Virus record (IMG/VR): IMGVR_UViG_3300036832_001382
Coordinates: 1 to 27,947 of that record
Source of the DNA: a virus
Length of the DNA stretch: 27,947 nt
Direction: 5' to 3' (one strand)
Below, in pieces: positions 4,272 to 27,947 of this stretch; the first letter of the stretch is position 1, and the number at the start of each line of letters is the position of its first letter. The translations under genes were made by a program, and so were the position numbers. The notes beneath the pieces are model-generated. The model ran no database searches, had not been told where the DNA came from, and worked only from the letters and a program-made list of their open reading frames with translations.

Positions 4272-5591
4272 TCATCTCCTGGCGAGTGCGTTGACGGCGG
4301 TGTTGGTGCGGGCGAGCAGGTCGCCGAGCGAGGTGTCGGGGCGGCCGACGGTGACGGCGACGTCCTCCTGGCCGTCGTCGCCGATCGTCCAGGCGATGCC
4401 GACGACCCGGATCGTGGTGTTGACGGCGAGCCGCCCGGAGTAGATGACGAGCGGCACCGTGTCGCCGATGTTCGGTGAGCCCCACACGTAGGCGCCGGGC
4501 CGCATGGTGAGCGAGTAGCTCGGGACGAGCACACCGGCCGAGGCGAGCAGGCCCTGGGCCCGCTGGTCGAGCGTCGCCTGCTGGTTGACGTCGGACGGCG
4601 CCGAGTCGGCGAGCGGCCACCACCCGACCGTCGACCCGGAGGCATCCGAGTTGGCGGCCTGCGAGAACATCTGCGGCGCGTTGGGGTCGCTGCTGGCGTT
4701 GTTGCCGAGCGAGCGGACGTAGTTGGCGTAGTCGGCCGAGTTGACGGTGCGGGCGACCGCCGACACGTTGCCGCCGTAGAGCAGGACGAGGTCGGTGCGG
4801 GCCACGCCCTGGGCCGGGTAGAAGATCCGCAGCGCGTCGCGGCCGGCGCCGAGCGGGCTGATGGTGCCGTTGCCGTCGATCATCGACAGCGTGTCGGCGG
4901 CGGCCGGCTCGGGGATGACGTCGTAGTCGAAGCCGCCGATGACCTTGGCGAGCTGGTCGATGGCGGTGCCGAGCGACGTCGAGCCCGCATAGCTGCGGAC
5001 CCGGAGCTGGCCGGAGGCGGTGCGGGTCGTGGTGCCGTCGCCGCCGACGAGGACGACGCCGATCGGCAGCGACGAGCCCGGCGCGTACGGCGCCGTCGGC
5101 GTCGGGCCACCCCCGGCGGCAGCCAGCAGGGCGGCGGCGATCTGGTCCTGGTCGAGATTCGTGTACGTGACGGGCGAGGCGCCGACGGTGAAGCGCCGCA
5201 CGATCGAGGCCAGCTTGTCGTGGGCGACGAAGTTGACGGTGTGGGCCTGCTCCGACAGCTGGTCCTCGGAGTGGTCGATGATGCCGCGGAACACGCAGAC
5301 GTCGGCGCCGGTCTGGTCGTCCCACCGCCACGCCATCACCGACGACGCCAGTTCCTGGATCGCCGCGCAGTCCGGCGCCCGCCCGTCGAGGGTGAACGTC
5401 AGCTCGGCCGGCGCATCCCACGCCCGGGTCAGCGAGCGCGAGCGGGCCGAGGCAAGCTCGAGGAGCTGCGTCTGGTCGTAGGTGGCCGGGGCGAACGCCC
5501 GGCGGTGCAGCGTGAGCCGCCAGCGACCGCGACCGACCGGCACCGGGTAGGTGTTCGGCGCGGCGAGCGGCGCGAGATCGAGCATGGTCAT
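4272..5591 (-). CDS. Minor tail protein, tail-hub-like (439 aa)
   Basis: The protein lies two genes after the tape measure and is similar in style to the Gp37-like minor tail proteins of actinophages. It has an early beta-rich domain (RWRLTLHRRAF, FTLDGRAPD), then VFRGIIDHSEDQL and TVNFVAHDKLASIVRRF at about residues 105-150. The C-terminal part (about 380-425) carries PNIGDTVPLVIYSGRL and a GQEDVAVTVG strand, as expected of a hub or baseplate component. ATG 5591 overlaps the upstream stop (ATGA); a second in-frame ATG lies two codons on. Exact placement in the tail tip is inferred from gene order. Confidence 0.82.
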   Translation of the reverse strand: MTMLDLAPLAAPNTYPVPVGRGRWRLTLHRRAFAPATYDQTQLLELASARSRSLTRAWDAPAELTFTLDGRAPDCAAIQELASSVMAWRWDDQTGADVCVFRGIIDHSEDQLSEQAHTVNFVAHDKLASIVRRFTVGASPVTYTNLDQDQIAAALLAAAGGGPTPTAPYAPGSSLPIGVVLVGGDGTTTRTASGQLRVRSYAGSTSLGTAIDQLAKVIGGFDYDVIPEPAAADTLSMIDGNGTISPLGAGRDALRIFYPAQGVARTDLVLLYGGNVSAVARTVNSADYANYVRSLGNNASSDPNAPQMFSQAANSDASGSTVGWWPLADSAPSDVNQQATLDQRAQGLLASAGVLVPSYSLTMRPGAYVWGSPNIGDTVPLVIYSGRLAVNTTIRVVGIAWTIGDDGQEDVAVTVGRPDTSLGDLLARTNTAVNALARR

Positions 5592-10741: not shown

Positions 10742-12100
10742 CTACTTGGCAGCCTTGGCCGGCGTCTGCTCGGGCGCCTGCTCGGCCTCGGGGCCGGACT
10801 CGGCCGGCGCAGGGATCGTGGCCCCGGCGTCGATCTTGGCGGCGGACGAGTTGTAGCGCTTCAGCACCGGGGCGGCGTAGCCCCACACGCCGAGACGGAT
10901 GCTCGATGGACCGAGGACCTCCTCATAGCGGAAGTTGAAGGTGCTCGACTCCAGCAGGAGCATGTCGTCGGCCTTCGTCACGTAGAGGTGGTTGTCGTTG
11001 GCGGCCCAGCTCGGGATGCACGAGAGCCCGACGACCTCACCGGCGATGTGCCCGTACTGCGTCGCCTCGCCGAGGCCGTAGGCGTTCTGCGGGCCGTGGT
11101 AGCCGGTCACGACGAGCGGGCGCCCGGCGGTGTCCTTCTGCTTCGACAGGAACGCCCAGGCGCCGATCGACAGGAACACCACCCGAGCGGGCGCCTTGCG
11201 GTGCTTGATCACCGAGGCGCTGCCGTCGATGAAGGCGTCGGGCAGGTTCGTGTAGACGGGCGCCGTGCCGGGATAGGTGATCGTCGCGGCCAGGTTGCCG
11301 GCCGTCAGCGCCTCGAAGGCGGCGACCACGGCCTGCTCGATCTGCTCGTTGTAGGCGCCGAGACAGTCGCTGTAGATGATCGAGTCGACGGACGGGTTCG
11401 ACCCGTCGACGAGCTGACGGGACACGTCGACCTTGCCGGTGTAGGTCTTCGGCGACGTCGGCAGCACCGCGGCGGTGAACGAGCCGTCGCCGGCCGGGTC
11501 ACCCTCGTTCGACTGCACGCCGACGACGGCGCCGGCCGTCTGCTGACCGATGTTGATCGGGTTGGCGTTGTCGATCGGGATCCGGCGCAGCGTGTCGGCC
11601 CACGGTCGGGCGCCGTGAGCGATCGCCGCGAACTCCTCGAACAGCCACGTCGGCGGGACGACACCCGGCGAGTTGGTGGTCGTGCCCGTGGCACGCATCT
11701 GGATGTTGTGGCGCTCGATGCGCGAGCGCGAGTCGGGGTCGCCGTCGAGCTGGGCGTGGAGCAGGTCGCGGAAGAACGACTGGCGGTCGCCGCCGGCATC
11801 GGGCGGGCGGTAGATCTCGGGCTCCGAGCGCACCTGCACGAGCGCGCCGCGCTCGCTGCTGCGCGTCTCGGGCAGCTCGCTGAGCGCGGCGGTGGTCGAC
11901 GAGCGACGGTCCTCCGTCTCACGGAGCTGGATGATGCGCTCGCCGAGCGGGTTCATCTCGGAGCGCAGCTCGACGAGCAGTCCGTCCTCGGACTCGTCGG
12001 GGTCGCGGCCCTCGTCGTGGCAGCGGTTCAGGATCGCGTCGTAGCGGGCGAACAGCTCGTTGTAGTCGTCGCCCAACCTGTTGAGCAGGCGGTTCGGCAT
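10742..12100 (-). CDS. Major capsid protein, HK97 fold, with N-terminal scaffold region (452 aa)
   Basis: The first 130 residues form a charged coiled coil (LRSEMNPLGERIIQLRETEDRR), the delta/scaffold region removed by the prohead protease in HK97-type phages. The mature shell domain follows, with ARPWADTLRRIPI, a beta-rich loop (YTGKVDVSRQLVDGS), a spine helix (NEQIEQAVVAAFEALTAG) and the late NFRYEEVLGPSSIRLGVWGY motif. An Ala/Pro/Glu tail closes it. I chose ATG 12100 because GAGGGAG sits 8 nt upstream; the open frame to 12235 crosses the leader repeats and is unlikely to be translated. Confidence 0.95.
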   Translation of the reverse strand: MPNRLLNRLGDDYNELFARYDAILNRCHDEGRDPDESEDGLLVELRSEMNPLGERIIQLRETEDRRSSTTAALSELPETRSSERGALVQVRSEPEIYRPPDAGGDRQSFFRDLLHAQLDGDPDSRSRIERHNIQMRATGTTTNSPGVVPPTWLFEEFAAIAHGARPWADTLRRIPIDNANPINIGQQTAGAVVGVQSNEGDPAGDGSFTAAVLPTSPKTYTGKVDVSRQLVDGSNPSVDSIIYSDCLGAYNEQIEQAVVAAFEALTAGNLAATITYPGTAPVYTNLPDAFIDGSASVIKHRKAPARVVFLSIGAWAFLSKQKDTAGRPLVVTGYHGPQNAYGLGEATQYGHIAGEVVGLSCIPSWAANDNHLYVTKADDMLLLESSTFNFRYEEVLGPSSIRLGVWGYAAPVLKRYNSSAAKIDAGATIPAPAESGPEAEQAPEQTPAKAAK

Positions 12101-12168
12101 CGCAGGACTCCCTCGGTAAGGGGTCGCGCCCAGGGCACGGCGGCGCAGGACGATCTCGGCCCTGATCC

Positions 12169-12283
12169 GGTTCCCTGCTCGACGGTTCCCGTCGTCCCGG
12201 CGGCGGGGTTCGCTCGTCGCGGTTCCCGCTCTCACCGGCCGACAGGGTTCGTCCCCTCCGGGGTTCGGTTGCGGCCGCGACAG
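12169..12283. repeat. Degenerate tandem repeat of GGTTC boxes in the capsid leader
   Basis: Six GGTTC boxes begin at 12169, 12184, 12207, 12221, 12246 and 12262. The spacings of 15, 23, 14, 25 and 16 form three units of 38-39 bp, each with two boxes 14-16 bp apart, followed by a GC-rich spacer ending in GACAG in units two and three. The unit length is not kept as a multiple of three, so selection is not on a peptide. Confidence 0.7.
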
Positions 12284-12382
12284 TACCGCTCAGCGTCGCC
12301 CCAGTGCTGCGCCAGATGCGCCCTAAGCCGCGAGACGCTCTCGCCGCGGTGCGCAGCGCTGAGCGCTGATCGACGCTCTGAG

Positions 12383-12402
12383 CGCTCTGGGGCGATCTGA
12401 GC
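12383..12402 (+). repeat. 20-bp motif shared with the integrase/lysis gap
   Basis: CGCTCTGGGGCGATCTGAGC differs by one base from the minus-strand sequence at 1371-1390. It lies just beyond the lipoprotein terminator. Both copies sit in the two non-coding gaps that bound the capsid-to-lysis segment. Confidence 0.6.
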
Positions 12403-12412
12403 GCAGACGCGA

Positions 12413-12445
12413 CAGAGCCCCGAGCTGCTCGTGCTCGGGGCTCTG
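12413..12445 (-). terminator. Strong hairpin terminator after the lipoprotein gene
   Basis: There is a perfect 12-bp stem, CAGAGCCCCGAG (12413-12424) with CTCGGGGCTCTG (12434-12445), and a 9-nt loop. No U-tract follows on either side, as is usual in actinobacteria. It lies 30 nt past the lipoprotein stop and would isolate that unit from the capsid leader. Confidence 0.8.
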
Positions 12446-12475
12446 CGGGCGGGGGGATGATGGGTCAGTCGCCGC

Positions 12476-12997
12476 TCACGCTGCCGGACCCTTCACGATG
12501 CTGACGTCCAGCCCCAGGTTGCGGGCCGCAGCGCGGACGGCCGCCTCGCCAGCCGCCGACGTCGTCTCGGCGTCCCCGGCGGCGGTCACCAGGAGGTTGT
12601 CGCCGCTGGCGATCACGACCCGTGCGTCGGCCGCGAAGAGGGTGGCGACGACGCCGCGCACGGCCGTCTCGGCGTCCTGGCGCTCGGCCGGAGTCGCCCA
12701 CGACGAGATCTGGAGCGGCGTGCCGGTTGCCGTCGTGCACGTCCCGCTCTGAGCCGGCTTCGGGCCGACCGGGGCCGCGCCCGGCGCCGGCGTCGACGGT
12801 GCGTAGTCCCGGCAGCCGAGCTTCGCGGCGGCAGCCTCGGCCGTCAGGGCGGGCGCAGGAGCCGTGATCTTGGCCGAAGGAGCGGTCGAGGTGGGCGCCG
12901 CGGCCGGCGTCGAGGGCGACGAGCTGTGCGACGTCGCGGCAGCGCCGCCGCAGCCCGCGAGGGCTACGACGGCGGCGAGGGCGAGGAGGCGGCGCAT
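12476..12997 (-). CDS. Secreted lipoprotein carried between protease and capsid genes (173 aa)
   Basis: It has a clear lipoprotein signal: MRR, a hydrophobic core LLALAAVVALAG, and the lipobox LAGC with Cys16 as the lipidated residue. A Ser/Thr/Pro/Ala linker of about 40 residues would span the wall region. The globular domain (about 60-173) has two cysteines (GCRDYAP, GTCTTATG) likely to form a disulfide, and alternating strands (ARVVIASGDNLLVTAAG). Similar small lipoproteins exist in actinobacterial hosts. ATG 12997 overlaps the upstream stop by one base. A surface protein within a head operon suggests expression in the lysogen, for instance blocking superinfection; this is inference. Confidence 0.82.
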   Translation of the reverse strand: MRRLLALAAVVALAGCGGAAATSHSSSPSTPAAAPTSTAPSAKITAPAPALTAEAAAAKLGCRDYAPSTPAPGAAPVGPKPAQSGTCTTATGTPLQISSWATPAERQDAETAVRGVVATLFAADARVVIASGDNLLVTAAGDAETTSAAGEAAVRAAARNLGLDVSIVKGPAA

Positions 12998-13419
12998 CAG
13001 ATGCGCTTCCCGCCCTGGAGCACGCGGCACAAGCCGCGGTTCGTCGAGCTGCTGACGCCGCGAGCACGAGCGATGGCGGCGAAGCCGGCGCCCTGGGCGA
13101 TCGCCGCGAGGATCAGCTCGTTGCGGCGGACCATCAGCGGGTCGGCGGCGTCGCGGCGCTCGGCGAGCAGCTTCTCGTCGATCTGCGCCTGGACGGCGGT
13201 GAGATCAGCGAGCGTCGCATCCCAGGGCGTCGACTCGACGACCTCGGCGGCGGGCTTCACGGCGGCGGGCTTGGCGGTGCGCTTCGACGCCTTCACGGCG
13301 GCGGCGATGTCGGCGCCGGTGAGGCGGGCGTTCGCTCGCTCGGCTGCTTCGGCGCTCACCTTGCGGGGCGCACGCTTGGCGGCGGGCCTCACGGCGGCGG
13401 GGGACTTCTTGGCGGTCAT
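12997..13419 (-). CDS. Basic helix-turn-helix protein, histone-like N-terminus (140 aa)
   Basis: Residues 1-65 are rich in Lys, Arg, Ala and Pro in the style of histone-H1 or nucleoid-protein tails (AAKRAPRKVSAEAAERA, KASKRTAKPAAVKPAAE). A helical middle follows (LADLTAVQAQIDEKLLAERRD). The C-terminal 45 residues hold a helix-turn-helix (ELILAAIAQGAGFAAIARARGVSS). It probably binds DNA, either as a regulator of the two-gene unit or as a nucleoid-type protein. The ribosome site is GAAGGA about 12 nt before ATG 13419. The next gene, the lipoprotein, is coupled to it. Function unproven. Confidence 0.75.
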   Translation of the reverse strand: MTAKKSPAAVRPAAKRAPRKVSAEAAERANARLTGADIAAAVKASKRTAKPAAVKPAAEVVESTPWDATLADLTAVQAQIDEKLLAERRDAADPLMVRRNELILAAIAQGAGFAAIARARGVSSSTNRGLCRVLQGGKRI

Positions 13420-13445
13420 GGTGACTCTGGTTCCTTCGGGTTTGG

Positions 13446-13465
13446 CGCTGCGCTTGTTCGCAGCG
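13446..13465 (-). promoter_or_regulatory. Hairpin in the leader of the helix-turn-helix/lipoprotein unit
   Basis: There is a 7-bp perfect stem CGCTGCG/CGCAGCG with a 6-nt loop, 27-46 nt upstream of ATG 13419. The surrounding gap (13420-13543) must contain the promoter of this two-gene unit, but I cannot fix a -10/-35 pair with confidence. The hairpin could be an operator or a 5'-leader stabiliser. Confidence 0.4.
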
Positions 13466-13543
13466 ATGTGGATGGAATCACCTGGTCAGGCGGTCCACGC
13501 AGTCCTGCCGAACAACCTGAAGTGATCGCCGTCACAGCCCGGC

Positions 13544-13583
13544 GGGGGCGCCGCGACCAGAGTCACCAGAGCGCGGCGCCCCC
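13544..13583 (-). terminator. Strong hairpin terminator after the protease-linked small gene
   Basis: A perfect 12-bp stem joins GGGGGCGCCGCG (13544-13555) and CGCGGCGCCCCC (13572-13583), with a 16-nt loop. It starts 15 nt past the stop at 13598 and would end transcription coming from the terminase/portal/protease genes. No U-tract is present. Confidence 0.75.
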
Positions 13584-13597
13584 TGCCGCGCACGACG

Positions 13598-13807
13598 CTA
13601 GCCAGCGCCCTCGCCCTCGGGCTCGTCAGCGTCGGGCAGCCCGAGCACGGCGAGCAGTGCGTCGCTCGTCGCCTCCGCCGCGGTCAGCAGCGCGGCCGCC
13701 TGCGCCGGGTTGTCGTCGGCGAGCGCGAGCTGCGCGGCGTCGATCGCCGCATCCAGCGCCTGAGCGAGCGCGCCGGGATCGTCGTCGGGGTCGTAGCTGT
13801 CGCTCAC
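13598..13807 (-). CDS. Acidic small helical protein (69 aa)
   Basis: Ala- and Asp-rich protein (DPDDDPGALAQALDAAIDAAQLALADD) predicted as two or three helices, with an acidic tail (DADEPEGEGAG). The GTG start at 13807 overlaps the protease stop (GTGA), so it is coupled to the protease. Position between protease and capsid would suit a small scaffold or head accessory protein, but there is no recognised family. The frame extended to 14074 overlaps the protease and is not credible. Confidence 0.7.
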   Translation of the reverse strand: MSDSYDPDDDPGALAQALDAAIDAAQLALADDNPAQAAALLTAAEATSDALLAVLGLPDADEPEGEGAG

Positions 13808-18211: not shown

Positions 18212-19729
18212 TCACTCCTTCACGAAGACCAGCAGCGGCTCGAAGGCGACTCTGCGCTCACCACGGCCACGCACGCGGCCGCCGAGCGGGAAGCGGTCGC
18301 GGCGCAGCAGGCGGAAGCCGACATCGCGGGCGAGCGTCTCGCACCACTCGACGAGCGGGTAGCTCGTGGCGCCGATCTTCACGTCGGCGATATTGACGAT
18401 CGCCACCGAGTCCGGCTTGAGGCTGCGGTACTGGAGGGCGAGCGTCGGCGCCAGGAAGCCGTCACGCCAGCTCTCGCCGCTCAGGTAGCGGTTGCAGCTC
18501 TGCGTCGGCTCGTCGCTGTAGTGCTCCTTGGCGAAGTACGGCGGGGACGTGAAGGCCAGGTCGCAGCTCTCGGGGGCGATCTCGCCCTCGACGTCCTCGG
18601 CCGGCAGGTTGATCAGCTCGACGTCCTTGCCGGCGCCGAGATCGGCGGCGAGCCGAACGTTCGCTCGATGCGTCTCGGTGTTCGGATCGACCCCGATGTA
18701 GCGGGCGCACTGCGACGCCAGGAAGCCGACGAGGCGGCCGCCGTAGCCCGTCGACGTGTCGAGCACGGTGGCGCCGTCGAAGCCGTAGCGGCGATACAGC
18801 GACAGGGCGAAGCCGGGGCGGAAGTTCGACGCGGCCTGCGCCCCCCTCGTGTACGGCAGCACGTTCAGGATCGACGTGTCGGTGATCAGCTGGTTGGGCG
18901 TCGCAGCGAGCAGGCGCAGCGCGACCAGCAGGTAGTCGTCGCGCTCGAAGGTCTCCCACACGGTGTTCTTGCCGGGCACCTTGGCGAGGAAGCGGTGCGG
19001 GTGGTACGTGTCGGCGACGCTGTAGCCGACGGTCGTCTCGGCGACGCTCGCTGAGGGCGTGGCGGCCAGCTTGTTGATCTCTTGCATGCACTCGTGGATC
19101 GACAGCTCGACCATTGGGAGCCCGACCCGGCGGTAGTGGGCGAAGGCGGCGGCGACGACGGTCTCGGCGTCGTAGACGTCGTAGCCGATCGGCTCGTCGG
19201 TCACCTCGGTCGGGATCAGACGGGCGAGATCGTCCTCGGTGTAGGCGGTCGCTTCGAGCAGCTCGAGGTCGGCAGTCGCCGCGACCCGCGCCAGCTCGGC
19301 GGCGAGTAGCTCGTGGTCGTAGTCGCCCAGTTCGGCGGTGCGGTTGTCGGCGAGCCCGTAGGCCGCGGCGGTCGTCTCGTCGTCGTCGACCCACACCACG
19401 GCGACGTGCGACCAGCCCAGCTCGTCACGAGCAGCCTTCAGGCCGTGGTTGCCGGCCTCGACGATGCCGACCGGGTCGCCGTGCTCGTCGCTGCCGGTGC
19501 GGCGGGCCACGAGGGGCTTGCGCTGGCCGAAGACCCTGAACGAGCGGGCGATGGCAGCGACGTCGCCGCGGCGAGGGTTCGTCGGGGCCTCGACGAGGTT
19601 GGACACGGGCACAGCGAGCGCTGAGAGCCCTTGGGCGATGTTGTGCGTCGTCGTAGCGCTCGGGGCGTCAGCGCGGCTCTGGGGCTCATCCAGCGCGGTC
19701 TGGAGCGACTCTGCGAGCTTCGACGGCAT
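18212..19729 (-). CDS. ParB-like domain fused to a DNA methyltransferase (505 aa)
   Basis: The N-terminal region, about residues 38-135, resembles ParB/Srx-like domains: LVEAPTNPRRGDVAAIARSF, FGQRKPLVARR, GIVEAGNHGLKAA, AAAYGLADNRTAELGDYD. A linker of about 170 residues of unknown fold follows, with a conserved-looking DTYHPHRFLAKVPGKNTVWE. The methyltransferase core has an SAM-site motif VLDTSTGYGGR (322-331), an acidic loop YIGVDPN, and the catalytic SPPY (395-398), which is typical of amino-methyltransferases (N4-C or N6-A). No restriction partner is nearby. ATG 19729 has a GGAG site. Such fusions methylate phage DNA, commonly to evade host restriction; target site unknown. Confidence 0.85.
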   Translation of the reverse strand: MPSKLAESLQTALDEPQSRADAPSATTTHNIAQGLSALAVPVSNLVEAPTNPRRGDVAAIARSFRVFGQRKPLVARRTGSDEHGDPVGIVEAGNHGLKAARDELGWSHVAVVWVDDDETTAAAYGLADNRTAELGDYDHELLAAELARVAATADLELLEATAYTEDDLARLIPTEVTDEPIGYDVYDAETVVAAAFAHYRRVGLPMVELSIHECMQEINKLAATPSASVAETTVGYSVADTYHPHRFLAKVPGKNTVWETFERDDYLLVALRLLAATPNQLITDTSILNVLPYTRGAQAASNFRPGFALSLYRRYGFDGATVLDTSTGYGGRLVGFLASQCARYIGVDPNTETHRANVRLAADLGAGKDVELINLPAEDVEGEIAPESCDLAFTSPPYFAKEHYSDEPTQSCNRYLSGESWRDGFLAPTLALQYRSLKPDSVAIVNIADVKIGATSYPLVEWCETLARDVGFRLLRRDRFPLGGRVRGRGERRVAFEPLLVFVKE

Positions 19730-19959
19730 CACACTCCGATCTCGGGCAGCTCGCGGGCTCCGCAGCCGTCCTCGGGGCCATTCTGGTTTCCTCGCCCAGG
19801 TTCGTGACGGCTCGCGCACAAATCAGTCGTACGTGATGACCAGCTCTCGCCCTCACGAAGAACGGGGTGGGGGGCCTCCCCCTGCTGCGAGCCGAGCCGA
19901 CGAGACGCCACCCCACCCCCACCCCACGGGGTAGGGGCAGTGTCAGTCGGACTCCGCCA
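19730..19959 (-). other. 230-bp gap upstream of the methyltransferase, with G/C-run hairpin
   Basis: Runs of C and G at 19916-19937 (CCCC, CCCC, GGGG, GGGG in mirror order, with one mismatch) can form a tight hairpin 23 nt past the HNH stop, a plausible terminator. A second G-run/C-run pair lies at about 19863-19881. A 60-aa frame from GTG 19911 to TGA 19729 ends in a TGATG junction with the methyltransferase, but it has no good ribosome site or recognisable content and I do not call it. A promoter for the methyltransferase/terminase operon probably lies in here. Confidence 0.5.
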
Positions 19960-22342: not shown

Positions 22343-22356
22343 TGTCACGCGTGACA
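22343..22356. repeat. Palindromic iteron, copy 1
   Basis: TGTCACGCGTGACA, a perfect 14-bp palindrome. The same sequence starts again 25 bp to the right. Confidence 0.85.
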
Positions 22357-22367
22357 TCTGCGCCGCC

Positions 22368-22381
22368 TGTCACGCGTGACA
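22368..22381. repeat. Palindromic iteron, copy 2
   Basis: Identical 14-bp palindrome to 22343-22356. A degenerate third copy (GTCACGCTTCC) follows at 22394, where it overlaps the stop codon of the initiator-like gene. Confidence 0.85.
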
Positions 22382-27379: not shown

Positions 27380-27947
27380 CTATGCGCGCCAGGCGATGCG
27401 TGGCGTGCCATCGGGCAGCAGCCCGGCGAAGCGGTCGCTCTCGAAGGCGGTCGAGCCGCGGCGCGTCGCCGAGCCGATCGTGACGCTCTCGACGAGCGCC
27501 GTCAGGATGCGACGCTGCTCGTCGACGCTCAGCTCGCCCCACGTGCGACCGACGAGCCCGTCCTCCACGATGAAGTCGAGCGCGCTGTCGGACTGCTGCG
27601 CCTTGGCGGCGAGCCGCTTCTCGATCTCGCGGTGGCGACGGTTGAGCGTGGCGAGGGTGCTGTTCTTGTCGTCGCGCTCGATCAGCCCGAGCCCGTAGTC
27701 CTCGTTCGTCGCGGCGCGGCGTGCCGCGATGCTCGCCAGCTCGGCCAGCTCGGCCGCGTCGTCGGGTCCGCCGGTCGAGCGCCGGGCCACTGCGTCGGTG
27801 AGACGCTCGACGACGAGACGCCCGAGCTGCTCCTCCAGGGCACCCTGCTCGCTCGTCGGGGCGCTCGCCTTGATCCCGACCCCCCCACAGCCGGGAGCAC
27901 CCGGCGCCTTGCGGCAGATGTAGCGACGCACGCCGCGGTCGCCGGTG
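27380..27947 (-). CDS. int: Large serine integrase, C-terminal part (27786-27947 repeats 1-162)
   Basis: This continues the frame from position 1. The last 135 codons of the 497-aa protein lie at 27785-27380, ending in TAG. It holds the end of the zinc ribbon (CRKAPGAPGCGGVGIKA), a helical coiled-coil section (LATLNRRHREIEKRLAAKAQ) and the typical C-terminus (RTWGELSVDEQRRILTALVE). The coiled-coil motif controls synapsis and direction in this family. The ATG visible at 27931 is internal, not a start. The gene converges on the rightward regulator. Confidence 0.93.
   Translation of the reverse strand, partial: TGDRGVRRYICRKAPGAPGCGGVGIKASAPTSEQGALEEQLGRLVVERLTDAVARRSTGGPDDAAELAELASIAARRAATNEDYGLGLIERDDKNSTLATLNRRHREIEKRLAAKAQQSDSALDFIVEDGLVGRTWGELSVDEQRRILTALVESVTIGSATRRGSTAFESDRFAGLLPDGTPRIAWRA
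27786..27947. repeat. Terminal redundancy, right copy
   Basis: Second copy of 1-162, 160 of 162 identical. Both differences are at third codon positions (GCG/GCA for Ala and GGT/GGG for Gly on the minus strand), so they look like natural variants from a mixed population rather than sequencing errors. Confidence 0.93.

What the first reader, a model, noticed from the sequence alone, without database searches (positions are those of the whole stretch)
12413..13583. A self-contained helix-turn-helix plus lipoprotein unit inserted in the head operon
Two perfect 12-bp-stem hairpins bracket a two-gene unit placed between the protease and capsid genes, where nothing is normally found. One gene is a basic DNA-binding protein, the other a lipoprotein exported to the cell surface. 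This is the layout of a moron expressed in lysogens. Surface lipoproteins of prophages (for example Ltp of TP-J34) block DNA entry of rival phages, so this may be a new superinfection-exclusion system.
Basis: partly seen in the sequence, partly recalled or inferred. Interest (0 to 1): 0.7.

Follow-up and report, generated by a model that had tools for sequence, protein, structure and literature searches.

The report
Phage cargo genes beside capsid-leader RNA

Summary
Observation partly confirmed. Two perfect hairpins (13 bp at 12413-12445, 12 bp at 13544-13583) bracket two overlapping minus-strand genes: a basic protein with a weak helix-turn-helix (13419-12997) and a lipobox lipoprotein (12997-12476). 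"Nothing is normally found there" is wrong: of 64 relatives, 47 have a 115-341 nt gap, but 17 carry 0.6-3.4 kb of unrelated cargo. Neither protein has a detectable homologue, so superinfection exclusion is untested and unsupported. Anatomy suggests a moron-like cassette: a candidate -10 (TAGCGT, 13600) upstream of the right hairpin, whose loop is an exact 13-nt antisense of the first gene's start (modelled as a bistable leader), and the left hairpin as terminator. The cassette ends just before the capsid operon's own promoter and leader. In 51/51 loci TAnnnT lies 11-20 nt before an RNA hairpin with two facing GAACC/GAACC 3x3 internal loops (three in this window). Covariation is strong: 94% of cells paired, score 0.59 against at most 0.10 when slid. 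No Rfam match; found only upstream of this capsid family. A capsid operon with its own promoter would explain why the slot tolerates insertions. The leader RNA is the more novel result; its function is inferred.

The parts
13595..13600 (-). Candidate -10 element TAGCGT of the cassette, overlapping the stop codon of the preceding 69-aa ORF
   Evidence: One of only six TAnnnT on the whole minus strand, 17 nt upstream of the right hairpin; no recognisable -35
13544..13583 (-). Perfect 12-bp hairpin with 16-nt loop in the likely 5' leader of the cassette
   Evidence: (z -4.7)
13556..13568 (-). Loop segment exactly complementary (13 nt) to the spacer and first base of the start codon of the HTH gene (13419-13431)
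   Evidence: whole-window shuffles give 0.73 such repeats of 13 nt or more within 250 nt; alternative fold
12997..13419 (-). 140-aa basic protein, K/A/P-rich N terminus, weak C-terminal helix-turn-helix
12476..12997 (-). 173-aa lipoprotein: signal peptide, LAGC lipobox, A/S/T/P spacer (about 17-52), C-terminal domain with two cysteines; start overlaps the HTH stop (TGATG)
12413..12445 (-). Perfect 13-bp hairpin, terminator-like but without a T tract
   Evidence: z -5.1
12359..12404 (.). Three copies of CTGAGCGC with exact 19-bp period (12359, 12378, 12397): candidate operator array
   Evidence: only such triple in the window, 1 of 2000 shuffles
12280..12285 (-). -10 element TACTGT of the capsid operon
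   Evidence: TAnnnT 11-20 nt before the leader hairpin in 51/51 loci, about 1/51 expected
12167..12268 (-). Capsid-leader RNA hairpin with three facing GAACC/GAACC 3x3 internal loops (relatives have two)
10742..12100 (-). Major capsid protein (HK97 fold)
   Evidence: Pfam Phage_capsid 4.7e-6, phrog_2263 8e-25
13598..13807 (-). 69-aa acidic ORF coupled to the protease (GTGA overlap); belongs to the upstream head operon
   Evidence: no family

Best explanation
The region is an accessory (moron-like) two-gene cassette in a recurrent cargo slot of a large family of soil actinophages. The slot lies between the head-protease gene and the start of the capsid operon. Shown: the capsid operon of this family has a conserved TAnnnT -10 and a conserved structured leader, so DNA can be inserted just upstream without separating capsid from its promoter. 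Inferred: the cassette has its own promoter (TAGCGT at 13600) and ends at the 13-bp hairpin (12413-12445). Its leader carries a hairpin whose loop is antisense to the first gene's start, which would let the RNA alternate between two folds and hold translation low or regulated. The first gene is probably an autoregulator binding DNA, and the coupled second gene is a lipoprotein anchored outside the membrane. The lipoprotein most likely changes a property of the infected or lysogenic host's surface; entry blocking of other phages is one option among several. The capsid leader is inferred to act in cis on the abundant capsid mRNA, as a 5'-end stabiliser, a protein-binding site or an antitermination element.
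For: Gap sizes in 64 relatives and cargo content. Hairpins beyond chance. Exact 13-nt inverted repeat between loop and start; competing folds differ by 2.5-5 kcal/mol, the winner depending on transcript length. Cassette GC rank 262/268. Promoter in 51/51 loci. Leader covariation 93.5-94.1% paired, score 0.58-0.59 against 0.03-0.10 slid. Correct nested partners paired 92-98% against 40-75% for wrong partners. The covariance model finds the leader upstream of the capsid in 53 relatives and the window at 39.9 bits or more, including 16 relatives not used to build it. No Rfam match.
Against: No homologue of either cassette protein, so nothing ties the lipoprotein to any function. HTH support is below Pfam cut-offs, and the predicted structures are poor (pLDDT 49 and 55). 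The cassette -10 overlaps a TAG stop codon and could be chance (six TAnnnT in 28 kb of this strand; roughly 4% for the 180-nt leader). Neither hairpin has a T tract. The cassette is seen in one genome only, so its leader cannot be tested by covariation. Several other cargoes in the slot look virion-related rather than lysogenic.
Confidence: 0.55

Rival explanations
1. One reading: a lysogen-expressed superinfection-exclusion system; the lipoprotein blocks DNA entry of rival phages and the HTH protein keeps the unit on in lysogens.
For: Lipobox and an A/S/T/P-rich spacer resemble the layout of Ltp (anchor, serine-rich spacer, active domain; PMC3952083). The phage is probably temperate: serine-integrase C terminus at 27383-27931 (phrog_95).
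Against: No sequence relative among solved structures or PADLOC defence families; not in the lysogeny module; no sign of a separate expression programme.
Confidence: 0.2
2. The genes are part of the late head operon and are expressed only in the lytic cycle; the lipoprotein alters the host envelope late in infection (lysis, blocking re-adsorption of progeny).
For: Same strand as the head genes. Other cargo in the slot is virion-like: L002 matches phrog_10356 virion structural protein, L019 weakly matches phrog_3304 tail-fibre assembly, and L019, L006 and L024 encode collagen-like repeats.
Against: A hairpin at each end and a separate capsid promoter suggest an independent transcript.
Confidence: 0.3
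3. The right hairpin is simply the terminator of the upstream head operon, and the complementarity to the HTH start is an inverted operator pair (ACCAGAGTCACCA, 137 bp apart) bound by the HTH protein for autoregulation, not an RNA switch.
For: Exact 13-bp inverted copies; the loop also repeats ACCAGAG twice.
Against: The copies coincide with a hairpin loop and a start codon, which an RNA role explains more directly; a -10-like element lies upstream of, not downstream of, the hairpin.
Confidence: 0.3
4. The capsid leader is not RNA but a DNA element: GAACC repeats are protein-binding sites upstream of the capsid.
For: Repeats are short and nearly invariant with spacings near 15/19/15.
Against: Stems between repeats covary while keeping pairing. 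G-U pairs far outnumber A-C mismatches on the capsid-sense strand. The -10 lies upstream, so the element is within the transcript.
Confidence: 0.06

Closest known systems
Ltp superinfection-exclusion lipoprotein (Streptococcus phage TP-J34; PMC3952083)
   Same: Prophage lipoprotein with a spacer before a C-terminal domain
   Different: Ltp lies in the lysogeny module, has a repeat domain and a serine-rich spacer; no sequence similarity to solved structures was found
Prophage moron / accessory loci (PMC7067206)
   Same: Extra genes at a mosaic site between conserved genes, apparently own transcription signals, deviating composition
   Different: Placed in the head operon; expression not shown
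HK022 put RNA (PMC9378689)
   Same: Structured phage RNA of about 70 nt close to a promoter, ahead of a long operon
   Different: put is two stem-loops in the early operons; this is one rod with facing A/C internal loops in front of the capsid; no activity tested
T7 gene 10 (capsid) mRNA leader (own knowledge)
   Same: Structured 5' end directly before the major capsid gene, after its own promoter
   Different: No sequence or structural relationship tested; to my knowledge the T7 leader has no repeated facing internal loops

Membership tests
Prophage moron | Present in one phage, absent between the same two genes in relatives | tested here: met
   47 of 64 relatives have 115-341 nt at this site; no relative has these genes
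Prophage moron | Own promoter | tested here: inconclusive
   TAGCGT at 13600; no -35; scan for sigma-70 sites found none
Prophage moron | Own terminator | tested here: inconclusive
   13-bp hairpin at the 3' end, z -5.1, but no T tract
Prophage moron | Deviating base composition | tested here: met
   GC 0.744 against 0.706, rank 262 of 268 windows
Prophage moron | Expressed in the lysogen, not needed for lytic growth | not testable with these tools
   No transcriptome or host
Ltp-type superinfection exclusion | Lipobox signal peptide and spacer | tested here: met
   MRRLLALAAVVALAGC; residues 17-52 rich in A/S/T/P
Ltp-type superinfection exclusion | Sequence or structural similarity of the active domain | tested here: not met
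   By sequence: no PDB hit. By structure: model too poor to compare
Ltp-type superinfection exclusion | Gene in the lysogeny module | tested here: not met
   Integrase at 27.4 kb; cassette in the head operon
Ltp-type superinfection exclusion | Blocks DNA injection via the tape measure protein | not testable with these tools
   Needs phage challenge
Known RNA families (Rfam 15) | Score above a family's gathering threshold | tested here: not met
   No match in the window or in six relatives; sub-threshold hits in 12090-13620 do not cover the leader

The most novel reading that the evidence does not exclude
The capsid leader is a new class of phage cis-regulatory RNA: a 5'-terminal rod with two or three facing 3x3 internal loops made almost only of A and C, recognised by a phage or host factor that controls the whole capsid-tail operon in a widespread uncultured actinophage family. 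The neighbouring cassette in this window has a second, unrelated bistable RNA leader of its own.
Probability: 0.5. Interest if true: 0.75.

Novelty: new variant of a known kind. Interest (0 to 1): 0.52.

Why it matters
It shows a specific place in phage head operons that repeatedly takes up cargo, and offers a reason: the capsid operon restarts there with its own promoter and leader RNA. The leader is a well-supported RNA family absent from Rfam, present in dozens of phages known only from metagenomes, and simple enough to test with a reporter. The lipoprotein remains a candidate host-surface modifier, but only a candidate.

Tried and rejected
Homologues of the lipoprotein and HTH protein: none in viral contigs, phage records or the PDB. 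Hits in 396 actinobacterial genomes are weak, mostly signal-peptide or low-complexity matches; those inspected were chance. A recalled actinobacterial G-C...G-x-C lipoprotein domain was considered, but a pattern scan of the held loci found no example, so it is not claimed. AlphaFold models without an alignment were poor, and Foldseek gave nothing better than E 0.2. Relatedness to the HTH cargo of L013 was not supported. Leader-model hits in actinobacterial genomes (30 of 297) were rejected: the ten inspected are mostly tandem 15-16-nt GAACC-type repeats that merely imitate the motif. The idea that leader covariation is a by-product of tandem repeats was tested with wrong-partner controls and rejected. 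Additional hairpins after the leader rod were looked for; the alignment gave no reliable consensus.

Full report
What the window is. G000 is a single 27,947-base virus record with most genes on the minus strand: small terminase 18094-17519, large terminase 17589-16168, portal 15968-14670, S78 protease about 14670-13804, capsid 12100-10742, tail tube, tape measure and amidase endolysin, and at the right edge the C-terminal end of a serine integrase (phrog_95). Terminase relatives lie almost all in Actinomycetota genomes, and the closest capsids in cultured phages are mycobacteriophage ones at 24-27% identity, so the host is probably an actinomycete; it is not known.

The observation. Both hairpins are exact and more than chance. 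Between them are two overlapping genes (TGATG), both with the codon-position GC of genes of this phage. The first encodes a basic protein with a weak C-terminal helix-turn-helix. The second encodes a lipoprotein with a clear lipobox, an A/S/T/P-rich spacer and a C-terminal domain of unknown fold. Its predicted structure is too uncertain to use.

The site. I collected 80 relatives by the capsid protein. In 64 of them the end of the protease and the start of the capsid can both be placed. In 47 the gap is 115-341 nt. In 17 it is 594-3436 nt and holds different cargo: collagen-like proteins, a virion structural protein relative (phrog_10356), a phrog_1084 protein with a weak match to a tail-fibre assembly family, a weak carbohydrate-binding-module match, a small family resembling glycosyltransferases by eye only, and in L013 two antisense genes, one with a helix-turn-helix. 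So the place is a recurrent cargo slot, not one where nothing is found. The cassette here has no counterpart in any of them.

How the cassette may be expressed. Only six TAnnnT sequences exist on the minus strand of the window. One, TAGCGT at 13600, overlaps the stop codon of the preceding 69-aa ORF and lies 17 nt before the right hairpin. The same arrangement, a -10 overlapping the stop codon of the preceding gene, appears at the capsid promoter of several relatives, such as L003 and L009. If it is a promoter, the right hairpin is the 5' end of the cassette message rather than a terminator. Its loop contains TGGTGACTCTGGT, the exact complement of ACCAGAGTCACCA, which covers the spacer and the first base of the start codon of the HTH gene. 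Folding gives two mutually exclusive forms, hairpin or loop-start duplex, within about 2.5-5 kcal/mol, the winner depending on how much of the gene is included. This is modelled, from one genome, and has no comparative support. Across the whole window, exact inverted repeats of at least 13 nt within 250 nt number three, against 0.73 in shuffles, so the repeat alone is not overwhelming; its position at a loop and a start codon is what makes it notable. A DNA reading (two inverted operators for the HTH protein) is also open.

What follows the cassette. After the 13-bp hairpin come three CTGAGCGC copies with an exact 19-bp period (1 of 2000 shuffles), a candidate operator array, then the capsid promoter and leader. 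In all 51 loci examined (50 relatives and the window) a TAnnnT sits 11-20 nt before the leader hairpin; random windows of the same loci give about one in 51. The leader therefore begins close to the transcript's 5' end, if TAnnnT is the -10.

The capsid-leader RNA. Four GAACC repeats at about -118, -103, -84 and -69 from the capsid start fold against each other: the first faces the fourth and the second faces the third, each pair forming a symmetric 3x3 internal loop within one rod. On the unfitted MAFFT alignment of 38 sequences 94.1% of cells pair, 12 of 17 pairs change on both sides, and the covariation score is 0.588 against at most 0.097 when partners are slid. Because repeats can imitate pairing, I paired each repeat's flank with every other repeat's flank: the correct partners pair 92-98%, wrong partners 40-75%. 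The loops are almost only A and C (703 of 711 letters) and in several genomes change together (AAA in L003, ACA/ACC in L029, ACC and CCC in L039, L041 and L052). L002, L003, L005, L029 and the window fold to this form alone as minimum-energy structures; L034 does not. The window has six repeats, giving three facing loops. G-U pairs outnumber A-C mismatches on the capsid-sense strand, as expected of RNA from that strand.

How far it extends. A covariance model finds it upstream of the capsid in 53 relatives and the window at 39.9 bits or more, including 16 relatives not used to build it (some near-duplicates of training members), and at 26-27 bits in L039, L041 and L052. It is not found upstream of the capsid in L020, L042, L068, L070, L072, L073 and L081 although upstream sequence is held. 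It is absent from the more distant prophages searched. Apparent hits in actinobacterial genomes look like tandem repeats. Rfam 15 has no match. A literature search of the held open-access papers found no description of such a leader; that search is limited.

Verdict. The finding's anatomy is right in the main, its claim of an unusual place is wrong, and its function claim is open. The best-supported explanation is a moron-like cassette in a cargo slot that exists because the capsid operon restarts there with its own promoter and leader. The leader RNA is the most novel and best-supported part; what it does is inference.

Noticed in passing
window 12167-12285 and the same place in more than 50 relatives (L002-L080): Conserved capsid-operon promoter and leader RNA hairpin with facing GAACC/GAACC internal loops; no Rfam match. 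Described in the report because it borders the cassette.
   Followed up: yes
window 12359-12404: Three CTGAGCGC copies at an exact 19-bp period between the cassette and the capsid promoter; candidate operator array.
   Followed up: partly
window 22343-22356 and 22368-22381: Two perfect 14-bp palindromes TGTCACGCGTGACA 25 bp apart, upstream of the 300-aa ORF at 22020-21118; looks like a repressor operator pair.
   Followed up: no
L013:4188-5629: Cargo in the same slot on the opposite strand: an HTH protein and a second ORF, with a perfect 14-bp hairpin (5494-5530) just before the capsid -10.
   Followed up: partly
L021:2310-2804, L043:4109-4606, L045:1923-2417, L031:4311-4811: A small protein family (about 165 aa, resembling glycosyltransferases by eye) carried in the slot by several phages; L021 and L031 were searched, with no Pfam match and no significant PHROG match.
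   Followed up: partly
window 18212-19819: 535-aa protein with a weak DNA methylase domain C-terminally; the N-terminal half looks ParB-like by eye.
   Followed up: no
L035:2944 and 12937, L058:2847, L019:2070: Further clusters of four GAACC in the same phages, away from the capsid; only L035:12944 gives even a weak model score (21.1 bits).
   Followed up: partly
50 nt upstream of the capsid -10 in 49 relatives: Position -27/-26 before TAnnnT is enriched for W and T; may be a -35-like element or conserved codons of the protease end.
   Followed up: no
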